From: a bacterium | Lineage (GTDB): Bacteria > SM23-31 > JAUVVT01 | Direction: 5' to 3' | Assembly (NCBI GenBank): GCA_030616165.1 | Contig: JAUWXV010000202.1 | Span: 1-6,830, forward strand | Length of the DNA stretch: 6,830 nucleotides | In this document: positions 1,512 to 6,830 of the stretch, piece by piece | How positions within the stretch are numbered: the first letter of the stretch is position 1 | Layout: the number at the start of each line of letters is the position of its first letter | Program-made: the position numbers and the translations under genes | Notes under the pieces: generated by a model | Database searches by the model: none | Seen by the model: only the letters and a program-made list of their open reading frames with translations | Told to the model about the DNA's origin: nothing

Positions 1512-4500
1512 TTAATCAGCAAATTTAGTTGAAACAATCTTCGAAACTCCGCCTTCTTCCATAGTAATTCCATAAATATACTTTGCAATCTCCATAGTCT
1601 TTTTATTATGCGTAACAATAATAAATTGTGTATTTTTCGAAAAAAGTTTTAAGATATTTATAAATCTGTCTATATTAGAATCATCCAAGGGAGCATCCAC
1701 CTCATCCAATACACAAAATGGACCTGGTTTCACCTGATATATAGCCATAAGCAGAGCTATTGCAGTTAGAGCTTTTTCCCCAGCAGAAAGAAGCGATATA
1801 GACTGAAGTCTTTTGCCAAATGGCTTTGAAATTATCACAATCTTAGAATCAAGAGGATCAGAGTCATCGGATAGCAATAAATCCGCATCACCATCTTTAA
1901 AAAACTTTAAATATATGTCCTTAAAATTCACTCTTATTTTTTCGAAACTCTCCATAAATTTTTCACATGCTGTTTTATTTATCCTTTGAATGGTCTCAAG
2001 CAGAGTTTTTTCTGCTTCAATAATATCATTCCTCTGCTTTATAAAATTATCATACCTTTCCTTTTCTTCTTGATATTCATCCACAGCTGCAAAGTTTATC
2101 TGCCCAAAAGACTCCAATTTCTTTTCAAATGCCTCAATCCCCTTTCTTTTAACTTCAATTTCTGTTTCATCCAATTTATCATCCTCTGAAACCTCTATAC
2201 CCTCATCACCAATTTTTTCCAACAACATCTTTTCTTCCTGCTGAAGTCTTGATAATTCCATTTCCGATTCAAAAATATCACTTACTCTCTTATCTCTCTG
2301 ATTTCTCTTATCTTTTATCCTTTTTTCCTCTTCAAATAATTCATTTTTAAAAGTAACCTGCTTACCTCTTATATTGTCAACTCTTTCTTCAAAATCATTT
2401 TTTGTTATTATTAACTCATTTATTTTGCTCTGACCATTGTCGATTCTTTTTTCCCAATCCCTTATCTCTTCATCTATCTTTAATATTGATTCTTTTCCTG
2501 AGATGATTCCTTTTTTGTATTTTTTGTCAAGTTCAACATTTCTTTTAAAATCTATATCAATTCTTTTTAATTCTTCCTGAAACTTTATCAAACTTAAGTT
2601 TTTTTCATAAACAGAGTTTTCAAGGAGTTTTCTTTTTTGTTCGATTTTTTCCTCTTGAATTTTTAATTTTTCGATTTCAACTTGAAGTCGTATCTGTTCA
2701 TTTTTAAGCATTTTCAACTCTGCTTTTTGCTTTTCAAGCGCTTCTTTATCGACCTTAAAAATTTCAAGCTGTTTGCGTTCTTTCTCCATTTTACCCAACT
2801 GTTCTCTGTCTTTTTTCACATCATAATCACAAACAGATATTTCGTTCTCTATCTCTCTTAATCTCTTTTCGGAATTTAATATCTCAAAACCAGTTAGGTT
2901 CAGTTTATCAGTAATATCTTCTATTTGCCTTAAATAGTCAACCTTAATCATTTCCGATTCTTCTATACTTTTCTTTATTTGTTCTATTTTTGTTTTAATC
3001 TTTTCAATTTCAGAAAGTTTACCATCTACTTCGCTATGCTTACTATCCCCAATAGAGTGTACAAATCCTTGCCTGTCTATCATCATTCCTGAAATATCAA
3101 CAACACCGACTCCGTTCTCTCGAGCGACCACATCAAACCCACTTTCCATTATATTATCTTTAGTTATTAATATATCATACAAAAGGAAATCAACCATCTT
3201 TTTTATATTTTTACTGCACTTCACAAAATCATTTGCCCACCCAATAATTCTGTCACCAGAAATATTCACTCTTTTTTGAACATTTATACTAATCTCATTA
3301 ATTTTATTTAATGGTATTATACTAACCCCACCGTTGGTTTTCTCTGCAATTAATTTAATTGCTTTAAAAGCATTTTCTTCATTATCAAAAACAAGAAAGT
3401 TTAAAGTCTGATTCAGGGCAGAAATTATTGCCTTTTGATACTTTTCCTCAGTACTAATCAACTCACTTACTGTTCCAAGAAAACCATCAACTGATTCTCT
3501 CCTTTCCAAAAGAAACTCATTTCCTTCAGATAATTTCCCTTTTTCTGAAATTATCTGATATAAAAACTCTATTTTCTTATTATCAATTTCAATAAGATTT
3601 TTAAGATTAATGATCTTTTCTTTTAACTCATCAACCATCGCCTTTTTCGCTTCTATATCGTTTTGCATTCTTGAACGTTCTGACTTTTTTTCATTGAGAA
3701 AATCTTCAATCTTTTTTCTTTCGGTAGTCAGACTCTGTAAAATCTTATTTTTGCTCAGAAGTCTTTCTTTTATCCATTTGCTTTCTTTTACCATTGAGGA
3801 TATCTTCTCTTCTCTCTGCCGGAGGTCTGAAAGTATCTTATCCTGTTTTCTGCTTTTTTCAGCATATTTTTCTATTAATTCGACTATCCTTGTCTGTGCT
3901 ACTGATAACCTGTTCTTTTTTTCATAATAGTCATTATAGAAACTATTAAGTTCCTCCGTATAGATTTTTTGTTCTGCTTTAAGGTCACTAATCTTTTCTG
4001 TAAGAATATTCAATTTTTCTTTATTTTCCCTCATACTTACTTCGTTTTCGACAATTTGAGTATTAATCTCTATTTCTTCCGATTCGACTTTTCGTATATT
4101 TTCACAAAATGTATTTACCTTTTCCTTTGCAATTGCCAATTCCATCTGTTCGTTATTTAAAACATCAATAGTATTATTATATTCCCTCTGCACTTCACTT
4201 AACTTATTATCAAGAATAATCATATCGGCTCTTAATTTTTCAAGAGCGGCTTCATCTTTTGCGAGTTCCCCCTCATTACTATCCTTAAGACTCTTAAGTT
4301 TATTGATACTTTCTATAAGAGGCTGCTTTTTTGACCTAATATTATAAAGACAACTTCTGTAAATTTCACTCTCTTTTATTTTTAACTCTGCTTTTATCTT
4401 TTGATATCTTCTTACCTTTGCAGCTTGCCTTTTTGAATAGTTGACCTTTCTTCCTACCTCAATAATAATATCATTTACTCTGAGGAGGTCTTGTCTTGTA

Positions 4501-5048
4501 TCCTCCAATTTCTTAAAGGTTTCACTTCTTCTCTTTTTATACTTTGTTATTCCAGACGCCTCTTCAAAAAGTCTTCTTCTGTCTTCTAACTTATCATCGA
4601 TTATCTGTTCAACCATCTTTAACTCTATTATAGAATACGCATTTGCTCCTATCCCGGTATCCATAAAAAGATTTGTTATATCCTTAAGCCTGCACTGCAC
4701 ATTATTTAAAAAATATTCACTTTCCCCCGAACGATACATCCTTCTTTTTATCTCTACTTCAGAATATTCAACTGGTAGCATTCCATCATTATTTTCTATA
4801 ACAATAGTCGCCTCAGCCATCCCAAGAGGTTTTCTGTCAATAGAACCGTTAAATATCACATTCTCCATTCTCTCCCCTCTGAGGTTGGAGATTTTTTGTT
4901 CCCCTAATACCCACTTTATTGCGTCAACTATATTTGTTTTACCGCATCCGTTTGGACCAACTATACACGTAATCCCATCATCAAACATTATCTCTGCCTT
5001 CTTTGCAAAGGATTTAAATCCGAATAACTTTACTTTTGATAAATACAT
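1512..5048 (-). CDS. smc: Chromosome segregation/condensation ATPase SMC
   Basis: SMC is the ATPase of the bacterial condensin complex, normally working as a homodimer with ScpA and ScpB (not in this window) to extrude DNA loops and separate sister chromosomes. The 1178 residues match the usual length and every part is present. The N-terminal head (1-170) has Walker A GPNGCGKTN (31-39), R57 in LRGERMENVIF, and the FEEASGITKYK helix (161-171). A coiled-coil arm runs from about 175 to 515, the hinge spans about 517-665, and the returning coiled coil runs from about 670 to 1030. The C-terminal head has signature LLSAGEKAL (1086-1094), Walker B FCVLDE (1111-1116), D-loop APLDDSN and H-loop H1147. 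Two deviations stand out. The usual Q-loop glutamine is Leu (L143 in IIELKM), and the second position of the signature SGGE is Ala (SAGE). The start MYLSKVKLFGFKSFAKKAEI is the canonical SMC N-terminus, although its ribosome-binding site (AAAGAGA) is weak. Thioredoxin follows 63 bases downstream. Confidence 0.97.
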   Translation of the reverse strand: MYLSKVKLFGFKSFAKKAEIMFDDGITCIVGPNGCGKTNIVDAIKWVLGEQKISNLRGERMENVIFNGSIDRKPLGMAEATIVIENNDGMLPVEYSEVEIKRRMYRSGESEYFLNNVQCRLKDITNLFMDTGIGANAYSIIELKMVEQIIDDKLEDRRRLFEEASGITKYKKRRSETFKKLEDTRQDLLRVNDIIIEVGRKVNYSKRQAAKVRRYQKIKAELKIKESEIYRSCLYNIRSKKQPLIESINKLKSLKDSNEGELAKDEAALEKLRADMIILDNKLSEVQREYNNTIDVLNNEQMELAIAKEKVNTFCENIRKVESEEIEINTQIVENEVSMRENKEKLNILTEKISDLKAEQKIYTEELNSFYNDYYEKKNRLSVAQTRIVELIEKYAEKSRKQDKILSDLRQREEKISSMVKESKWIKERLLSKNKILQSLTTERKKIEDFLNEKKSERSRMQNDIEAKKAMVDELKEKIINLKNLIEIDNKKIEFLYQIISEKGKLSEGNEFLLERRESVDGFLGTVSELISTEEKYQKAIISALNQTLNFLVFDNEENAFKAIKLIAEKTNGGVSIIPLNKINEISINVQKRVNISGDRIIGWANDFVKCSKNIKKMVDFLLYDILITKDNIMESGFDVVARENGVGVVDISGMMIDRQGFVHSIGDSKHSEVDGKLSEIEKIKTKIEQIKKSIEESEMIKVDYLRQIEDITDKLNLTGFEILNSEKRLREIENEISVCDYDVKKDREQLGKMEKERKQLEIFKVDKEALEKQKAELKMLKNEQIRLQVEIEKLKIQEEKIEQKRKLLENSVYEKNLSLIKFQEELKRIDIDFKRNVELDKKYKKGIISGKESILKIDEEIRDWEKRIDNGQSKINELIITKNDFEERVDNIRGKQVTFKNELFEEEKRIKDKRNQRDKRVSDIFESEMELSRLQQEEKMLLEKIGDEGIEVSEDDKLDETEIEVKRKGIEAFEKKLESFGQINFAAVDEYQEEKERYDNFIKQRNDIIEAEKTLLETIQRINKTACEKFMESFEKIRVNFKDIYLKFFKDGDADLLLSDDSDPLDSKIVIISKPFGKRLQSISLLSAGEKALTAIALLMAIYQVKPGPFCVLDEVDAPLDDSNIDRFINILKLFSKNTQFIIVTHNKKTMEIAKYIYGITMEEGGVSKIVSTKFAD

Positions 5049-5183: not shown

Positions 5184-6830
5184 TCAAGGAATATAAGTAT
5201 TAGCAAAAAATTTTACAAAATCATAAGTATTATGAAAACTCTGATAATATAAAAAAACTATTCCGAATAAAGCAAAAGTTATTCCCCCAAACGCAAGTAC
5301 TACCTTTTTAATCTGCACCTGAAATGATATACTTATAACTCTTGTCAATCTAAATATATACCAAACAATAAAAAATGAAACAAGAAATAGACTTAAAAAA
5401 ATAACACTTTTATATTTCAAAGCGGGATACAAAACTATCGTTAAAAGAATAAGAAATAAATTATTTACGCCAGACCAAAACACTAAATGAACAGCGCTTT
5501 TATAAGAAAGGGTAGATTTTTGAAAAATACCCCATAAATAGACTATCCATGAAACAAAAAGAAAAAAAACAAATAAAATTAAGGAACTGTATAATACAAA
5601 ATAAAGTGGTTTCCAGGTAAGCCTTCCAACCATCTCTTTAACAAAATTATTAAAAATAAAATGAGAGATAAAATAGTCAAACTCCTTATTAAACCTGAAG
5701 TAATAAAAATACGAAGATAAAATTACCGAAAAAATAACAGATATCATTATACCAAGAAAAATAGTCTGTCTTATCGAAAGGACTCTCTTCTGTATAACAT
5801 CTCTGAAATAGTTTTGGGGAAAGATTAAAGACCTTCTTAAATTTTCAGAAAATCTTTTGTTTCTTTTGTAAAGGTAAATCAGAAATATAATCATTATAAA
5901 TCCAATAACCTGATATTCGTAGGGATCATAATTTTTATGATTAACCGAAAAAATCGCCGGGATTTGACCTTCCGCATTTAGTGCTTTTATTATTCTATAA
6001 GAAATTCTTTCATTCCTATAGTAATCTGTCAACCCAATCGCATAAAGGTATTGGTCTGATTCAGGAGGAACAATAATTAGTGGTCTTTCCACTCTCCAGT
6101 CAGAATAGCTCCATAATATACTCATATCTATCTCAGGATCAGATAATATTTTATTATAAAAACTCTCAAGAATTACAGCCTGATAGTCCATTAAACTCGG
6201 AGTCATTCTTCCATTCAGACCCATTGAAAATAGATCAATTCCATATCGAGAAATTATTAATGGTTTATCAGAAAATCTCATTTTCCATATACTTAATATT
6301 TCCTCCATCTCCTCAGGAGAATTGGTGTAAATGTTGATACCTGGCAGATCAATCATATTAGCACATTTCTCATTTTCAATTATTCTCGAAGAGAAAAAAG
6401 AAGGTCTTGAATCAATGTTTTTTAAAACTTTAACCAATTCTCCGACATAATTAACAGCTTCTGTGTCTGAAGATTCAAATTCCCCCCCTAATCCCCAAGC
6501 AATGACAGACACACGATTTTTATCCCGCCGAATCATCTCTTTAAAATAATTAATGCTGACTTCCTTATATCGCTCATTTTTAAAACATATAGCAGGAACA
6601 TTCCAGACCGGGAGACTTTCAATCGTAAAAATCCCATATATATCACATAATTCATAAAAATATGGATGAGATGGATAATAACCACTCTGAATAAGATTAA
6701 AACCTAAATTCTTTATTTCTACAATCTCTTTCTCGATAATATTCCAGTTTAAAGCAGATCCGAGCCCTGGATAATCCTCTTGATATAATATTCCGTAAAG
6801 CTTAATTTTTTCATTATTTATATAAATATC
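5184..6830 (-). CDS. GH2-like barrel (probable pseudoenzyme) fused to a six-helix membrane domain; N-terminus off right edge
   Basis: The frame stays open to the right edge, so the internal ATG at 6536 is not the start; 548 C-terminal residues are visible. Residues 1-290 follow the TIM-barrel domain of glycoside hydrolase family 2: YQEDYPGLG (16-24), YYPSHPYFYELCDIYGI (51-67), SVIAWGLGGE (108-117), KPLIISRYG (189-197), LWSYSDW (239-245). The acid/base Glu is kept (E117), but the nucleophile Glu is Arg (R195), the Asn before the acid/base is Gly (G116), and the LacZ-type active-site His, Arg and His correspond to Q17, Q48 and Y51. Glycosidase activity is therefore unlikely. Six membrane helices follow, at about 306-323, 355-378, 408-434, 446-470, 474-494 and 508-530. 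The K/R-rich segment after helix 1 (KRNKRFSENLRR) should be cytoplasmic, which places the barrel outside the membrane. The helical part, with its LIFPQNYFRDV lead-in, recalls Yip1-type membrane domains; that is a weak inference. Ligand and role are unknown. The gene ends 135 bases before the smc start, with a probable terminator between. Confidence 0.85.
   Translation of the reverse strand, partial: DIYINNEKIKLYGILYQEDYPGLGSALNWNIIEKEIVEIKNLGFNLIQSGYYPSHPYFYELCDIYGIFTIESLPVWNVPAICFKNERYKEVSINYFKEMIRRDKNRVSVIAWGLGGEFESSDTEAVNYVGELVKVLKNIDSRPSFFSSRIIENEKCANMIDLPGINIYTNSPEEMEEILSIWKMRFSDKPLIISRYGIDLFSMGLNGRMTPSLMDYQAVILESFYNKILSDPEIDMSILWSYSDWRVERPLIIVPPESDQYLYAIGLTDYYRNERISYRIIKALNAEGQIPAIFSVNHKNYDPYEYQVIGFIMIIFLIYLYKRNKRFSENLRRSLIFPQNYFRDVIQKRVLSIRQTIFLGIMISVIFSVILSSYFYYFRFNKEFDYFISHFIFNNFVKEMVGRLTWKPLYFVLYSSLILFVFFLFVSWIVYLWGIFQKSTLSYKSAVHLVFWSGVNNLFLILLTIVLYPALKYKSVIFLSLFLVSFFIVWYIFRLTRVISISFQVQIKKVVLAFGGITFALFGIVFLYYQSFHNTYDFVKFFANTYIP

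What the first reader, a model, noticed from the sequence alone, without database searches (positions are those of the whole stretch)
5961..6830. GH2-like barrel that has lost most of its catalytic residues but kept its framework
The domain clearly follows the GH2 pattern, but several LacZ-equivalent active-site positions are changed. The His of the HED-type motif is Q17 (6780-6782), the Arg and His of the RxSHYP-type motif are Q48 and Y51, the Asn of the NE pair is G116, and the nucleophile Glu is R195 (CGA, 6246-6248). Only the acid/base E117 (6480-6482) remains. The frame is intact and the structural motifs are conserved, so this looks like a maintained pseudoenzyme, perhaps a sugar-binding or sensing domain outside the membrane, rather than a decaying gene. 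The residue correspondence comes from alignment by eye to family motifs recalled from memory.
Basis: partly seen in the sequence, partly recalled or inferred. Interest (0 to 1): 0.7.

Follow-up and report, generated by a model that had tools for sequence, protein, structure and literature searches.

The report
Membrane-anchored inactive GH2 barrel family
The gene encodes a sugar-cutting-enzyme fold that has lost its cutting residues but is kept as a single-copy membrane protein throughout several poorly known bacterial phyla, often right beside the chromosome-organising gene smc, which suggests it now serves as a structural part of the cell envelope.

Summary
Window residues 1-289 (6830-5964, minus strand) form a GH2 beta-glucuronidase-type TIM barrel (Pfam E=3.7e-25; structural Z=28 to GH2 enzymes). 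Q17, Q48, Y51, G116 and R195 replace LacZ His357, Arg388, His391, Asn460 and the nucleophile Glu537; only the acid/base E117 remains.

It is not a decaying gene. The fragment is the 3' part of an ~860 aa protein: probable signal peptide, GH2 sandwiches, barrel and about six membrane helices. Orthologues occur once per genome: 22 of 23 good genomes of one phylum, 7/7, 4/4 and 9/9 in three others. Of 60 readable members, none has a Glu at the nucleophile position and 19 keep the acid/base Glu. They form one clade apart from active GH2 enzymes (100/99 support). Barrel dN/dS is ~0.06. R195 itself is not conserved (7 of 60).

Catalytic positions drift while new conserved residues (H55, P74, P79, W245, P250) ring the barrel mouth. 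This favours a scaffold or docking role over the old sugar pocket. The gene lies just upstream of smc in at least three phyla, often followed by a GWxTD-domain gene. The molecular function is unproven.

The parts
5184..6830 (-). Pseudo-GH2 membrane protein, 3' part (548 codons plus stop); the 5' part (expected: signal peptide and GH2 sandwich domains) is beyond the contig end
   Evidence: the missing 5' part is not elsewhere in the assembly
5961..6830 (-). GH2 C-terminal TIM barrel (residues 1-290), catalytic residues substituted
   Evidence: Pfam PF02836 E=3.7e-25; VIA-align Z=28.1 over model residues 1-289 to GH2 6ncw
6246..6248 (-). R195 (CGA) at the nucleophile position (LacZ E537, UidA E504)
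6480..6485 (-). G116-E117: Asn of the NE pair lost, acid/base Glu kept (LacZ N460-E461)
6780..6782 (-). Q17 at the LacZ H357 position
6678..6689 (-). Q48-S-G-Y51 at the LacZ R388...H391 positions
5187..5924 (-). Membrane module of about six helices (residues 303-548), with the conserved loop motif F327-x2-N330-x2-R333 ... F342-x-D344-x4-R349 between helices 1 and 2, plus W406, W452, W490 and R494
   Evidence: model helices 303-323, 353-380, 408-436, 443-470, 474-502, 507-533; conservation; Pfam Yip1 below cut-off
1512..5048 (-). smc, chromosome segregation protein SMC, 135 nt downstream of the pseudo-GH2 gene on the same strand (conserved neighbour)
   Evidence: TIGR02168 887.5 bits; neighbour survey

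Best explanation
The gene is a member of an ancient, vertically kept family of inner-membrane proteins. Each has a secreted GH2 ectodomain (two sandwiches plus TIM barrel) joined to a module of about six membrane helices. The ectodomain lost the retaining-glycosidase nucleophile in the family's common ancestor and is catalytically dead as a GH2 enzyme (shown by sequence, not by assay). I infer that the barrel is kept as a rigid periplasmic scaffold. The loops around its mouth, now carrying family-specific conserved H55, P74, P79, W245 and P250, dock a partner, either an envelope protein or a polymer. The membrane module, whose conserved F-x2-N-x2-R...FF-x-D-x4-R loop should face the cytoplasm, links this to an inner-side or in-membrane partner. 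The protein would then be a constitutive envelope assembly or adaptor factor of these phyla, comparable in logic to the fake-glucosidase ectodomains of 4F2hc and rBAT. Shown: fold, residue losses, orthology, single copy, purifying selection, synteny. Inferred: topology, scaffold role, partners.
For: Fold. Residue losses in all members, against intact pairs in the active GH2 enzymes compared: (nucleophile Glu 0/60; acid/base Glu 19/60; NE pair 3/60). One branch separates the family from 20 other GH2 proteins, support 100/99, with catalytic columns left out of the tree. Single copy and near-universal in several phyla. Purifying selection: omega 0.058 for the barrel, window vs G001, likelihood-ratio 128.6 against omega=1; other pairs all far below 1. 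The seven catalytic columns are much less conserved in the family than the other 29 columns that active GH2 enzymes conserve (mean top frequency 0.31 vs 0.68, permutation p=0.00025). The five clearest gains of conservation all lie in loops on the C-terminal (mouth) face. Same architecture in full-length members.
Against: No biochemical or interaction data exist. Rim conservation could also mean the mouth packs against the protein's own sandwich or membrane domains. The acid/base Glu persists in 19 of 60 members, and three keep the NE pair, so a residual or altered activity in some branches is not excluded. The alignment of the most divergent members is uncertain. The predicted models have modest confidence (pLDDT 65.5 and 53.3) and the membrane part is weakly modelled.
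Confidence: 0.6

Rival explanations
1. Glycan-sensing receptor: the barrel still binds a sugar in the old pocket and signals through the membrane helices.
For: The GH2 fold and sandwich domains often bind sugars; W240 and E117 remain in the window; the ectodomain is probably periplasmic.
Against: The sugar-contacting columns (17, 48, 51, 116, 117, 195, 240) are the ones that drift in the family. No signalling domain is fused. Near-universal single-copy presence is unlike the patchy spread of carbohydrate sensors (inference).
Confidence: 0.2
2. Still an enzyme with an unusual mechanism, for example acting through E117 and a non-Glu nucleophile or substrate assistance.
For: E117 persists in 19 of 60 members and the NE pair in three.
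Against: No Glu occurs at the nucleophile position, and one lies within a few residues of it in only two members. No family-specific carboxylate is conserved in the barrel. 41 of 60 also lack the acid/base.
Confidence: 0.07
3. A recently decaying gene or an assembly artefact.
For: The contig ends inside the gene; the orthologue G001 carries a TAA near its 3' end, next to its contig end.
Against: 548 open codons; omega about 0.06; the same state in 60 members across phyla.
Confidence: 0.02

Closest known systems
GH2 beta-glucuronidases and beta-galacturonidases (E. coli UidA, human GUSB, E. tayi 6ncw)
   Same: Same sandwich-sandwich-barrel order and TIM-barrel fold; Z 26-28 over the barrel.
   Different: Nucleophile Glu, Asn of NE, and the substrate Arg and His residues are lost; a membrane module of about six helices is added.
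4F2hc (SLC3A2) and rBAT (SLC3A1) ectodomains (PMC8537225)
   Same: A glycosidase TIM barrel on a membrane protein, treated as a fake or orphan glucosidase, working as ancillary/scaffold protein of a membrane complex.
   Different: GH13/alpha-amylase type, animal, one membrane helix; no common origin implied. A parallel in logic only.
GH2 domain architecture types 1-5 (PMC5145203)
   Same: Shared GH2 core; diversification by C-terminal additions.
   Different: A text search of that survey found no mention of membrane-anchored or inactive GH2 proteins.
Yip1 domain (PF04893)
   Same: A weak match of the window's membrane module, 17.5 bits.
   Different: Below the 28.6-bit cut-off, and absent in the nine other family members scanned.

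Membership tests
GH2 superfamily by fold (Pfam PF02836) | Profile match above the curated cut-off | tested here: met
   89.1 bits, cut-off 21
GH2 superfamily by fold (Pfam PF02836) | TIM-barrel structure like solved GH2 enzymes | tested here: met
   Z=28.1, rmsd 3.0, 278 residues to 6ncw
Catalytically active GH2 glycosidase | Glu nucleophile at the end of strand 7 | tested here: not met
   R195; no Glu in any of 60 members
Catalytically active GH2 glycosidase | Asn-Glu pair after strand 4 | tested here: not met
   G116-E117 in the window; the pair kept in 3 of 60
Catalytically active GH2 glycosidase | Measured hydrolysis | not testable with these tools
   needs purified protein
Maintained pseudoenzyme | Orthologues share the loss | tested here: met
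   60 of 60 lack the nucleophile; one clade
Maintained pseudoenzyme | Purifying selection | tested here: met
   omega well below 1 in six pairs; dS is saturated or nearly so in most pairs
Yip1 membrane family | Profile match above the curated cut-off | tested here: not met
   17.5 vs 28.6 bits; no match in nine other family members
4F2hc/rBAT-like ancillary ectodomain | Physical partner membrane protein | not testable with these tools
   no partner known

The most novel reading that the evidence does not exclude
The family is a phylum-wide core envelope protein that works with its neighbours SMC and the GWxTD-domain protein: a periplasmic pseudo-glycosidase scaffold whose cytoplasmic loop couples the envelope or its growth to the chromosome-organising machinery. 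The conserved order pseudo-GH2 - smc - GWxTD across phyla would reflect a shared pathway rather than an inherited gene order.
Probability: 0.12. Interest if true: 0.85.

Novelty: new variant of a known kind. Interest (0 to 1): 0.5.

Why it matters
It defines a near-universal, single-copy membrane protein family in several largely uncultured phyla that automatic annotation would call a beta-galactosidase or beta-glucuronidase. That would wrongly credit these organisms with an extra sugar-degrading enzyme and hide a probable core envelope component. It also gives a bacterial, GH2-type counterpart to the animal fake-glucosidase ectodomains. The conserved link to smc makes a concrete question testable: does an envelope protein work with the chromosome machinery in these bacteria?

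Tried and rejected
Decay: rejected. R195 as a conserved functional substitute: rejected (R in 7 of 60; N, G, K commoner). Yip1 membership: not met. A solved relative of the membrane module: none credible by sequence (two chance-level matches). The first attempt at a collection scan with the broad membrane alignment failed for lack of conserved stretches. The missing 5' half was looked for in the own assembly and not found. An active relative with a membrane tail (G045/L013, NE and SEYG intact) was examined as a transitional form, but it groups with the active enzymes in the tree. The GH2 paralogue G000:C239 looked like a second pseudoenzyme in the alignment, but its sequence (SDKSP and EFNTEVGPG) fits an exo-glucosaminidase-type GH2 with an Asp/Glu pair, from memory. 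Papers on GWxTD: none held.

Full report
Observation. The window is a whole contig (G000:C236) of a genome in a phylum of which only six genomes are held. Named relatives in that phylum include 'bacterium SM23_31' and a 'candidate division KSB1 bacterium'. The frame 5184-6830 (-) is open to the contig end. Its first 290 residues match Pfam Glyco_hydro_2_C at E=3.7e-25 and solved GH2 enzymes at up to E=1.7e-18. An AlphaFold model made from five family members gives an eight-stranded barrel that aligns with GH2 beta-glucuronidases and galacturonidases at Z 26-28 over residues 1-289.

What the gene is. Full-length orthologues (about 840-980 aa frames) show a probable signal peptide, GH2_N and GH2 sandwich domains, the barrel, and a C-terminal membrane module. 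In the window the module is residues ~303-548, with helices 303-323, 353-380, 408-436, 443-470, 474-502 and 507-533. Pfam has no model for it: Yip1 scores 17.5 bits against a cut-off of 28.6 in the window and nothing in nine other members. Its best conserved residues are W406, W452, W490, R494 and the motif F327-x2-N330-x2-R333...F/Y341-F342-x-D344-x4-R349. By the positive-inside rule (inference) this motif faces the cytoplasm.

Distribution. A profile of the barrel end plus membrane module found exactly one copy in each positive genome and nothing in most of the domain: 21 of 386 broadly sampled genomes. Within positive phyla it is nearly universal: 22 of 23 good genomes in the phylum of G348 (35 of 40 overall), 7/7 in that of G201, 4/4 in that of G056, 9/9 in that of G085, and 5 of 6 in the window's own phylum. 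With G006, G012, G050 and G195 outside these groups, at least six phyla are involved. This is the pattern of a core gene, not of an accessory carbohydrate gene.

Catalytic state. In 60 readable members the nucleophile position is N 15, G 11, K 10, R 7, A 5, L 4, D 3, V 2, S 2, T 1, and never E. The acid/base Glu is kept in 19 and the NE pair in three. Active GH2 enzymes from the same and other genomes keep both. A tree of 41 barrels built without the catalytic columns puts all 21 membrane-anchored members on one side of a branch with 100/99 support. The simplest history is one ancestral loss of the nucleophile, followed by drift of the other catalytic positions.

Selection. Pairwise codon models give omega 0.058 for the barrel and 0.070 for the linker and membrane part between the window and G001 (likelihood-ratio 128.6 and 113.3 against omega=1). 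G219-G078, the pair with the lowest synonymous divergence (dS ~2-2.6), gives 0.12 for the barrel and 0.05 for the membrane part. dS is saturated or nearly so in most pairs, so the exact values are rough, but omega=1 is rejected everywhere.

What is conserved instead. Columns strictly conserved in active GH2 enzymes split cleanly: the seven catalytic columns fall to a mean top frequency of 0.31 in the family, the other 29 stay at 0.68 (permutation p=0.00025). The largest clean gains of conservation, P79, P250, W245, H55 and P74, all lie in loops on the C-terminal face, around the former active-site mouth. In the larger set P74 is in 58 of 60, P79 40, H55 31, W245 28. This is what I would expect if the mouth became a docking surface. 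Packing against the protein's own domains is an alternative.

Neighbourhood. smc lies immediately downstream on the same strand in the window (135 nt) and in G002, G004, G005, G006, G219, G195, G078, G050 and G348 (gaps 6-441 nt). In the phylum of G348 all 26 further informative loci have smc within 1.34 kb, 19 of them within about 110 nt. In G006, G219, G195, G078, G050 and G348 a GWxTD-domain protein (TIGR04514 in the four neighbours scanned) follows smc; in G201 and G332 it directly follows the pseudo-GH2 gene. Other lineages lack the smc link (G012, and the phyla of G056, G085 and G201, as far as the fetched flanks show). The order is therefore old and widespread but not universal; it is suggestive of a shared pathway and does not prove one.

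Mechanism and rivals. The best reading is a periplasmic scaffold or adaptor joined to a membrane module, similar in logic to 4F2hc and rBAT, whose ectodomains are described as fake or orphan alpha-glucosidases with roles in stability and trafficking of their transporter partners (PMC8537225). A sugar receptor using the old pocket is possible but disfavoured by the drift of the sugar-contacting positions. Residual enzymology is unlikely. Decay is excluded.

Novelty. Inactive glycosidase ectodomains on membrane proteins are a known kind. A GH2-type, multi-helix, phylum-wide bacterial family of this sort was not found in the papers searched, and the GH2 architecture survey does not mention membrane-bound or inactive forms (PMC5145203). 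The searches cover open-licence papers only.

Limits. The 5' half of the gene is absent from the assembly. Topology is inferred. Membrane-part models are weak. No experiment was possible.

Noticed in passing
L034, L035, L036, L037, L077, L078, L080, L081, L082 (downstream of the GH2 gene) and window 1512-5048: smc directly follows the pseudo-GH2 membrane gene in at least three phyla, often with a GWxTD-domain gene after it; the function of this cluster is unknown.
   Followed up: partly
L033 3697-3699 (G001): The closest orthologue has a TAA about 40 codons before the position of the window protein's end, close to its contig end; it would lack the last membrane helix unless it is a sequence error.
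   Followed up: no
L013 547-3096 (G045): A GH2 protein with an intact NE pair and SEYG nucleophile motif also carries a C-terminal membrane-like tail; it groups with active GH2 enzymes, so active GH2 enzymes can be membrane-anchored too.
   Followed up: partly
L085 7256-10231 (G000:C239): A GH2 paralogue in the window's genome with SDKSP and EFNTEVGPG motifs, probably an exo-glucosaminidase-type enzyme rather than a second pseudoenzyme.
   Followed up: partly
Loci L101, L102, L103, L104, L107, L111, L115: In seven genomes of the phylum of G348 about 0.75-1.3 kb separates the pseudo-GH2 gene and smc, enough for an inserted gene that I did not identify.
   Followed up: no
L113, L107, L117 (G407, G406, G401): Three members keep the full Asn-Glu pair while lacking the nucleophile, a possible record of the order of loss.
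   Followed up: no
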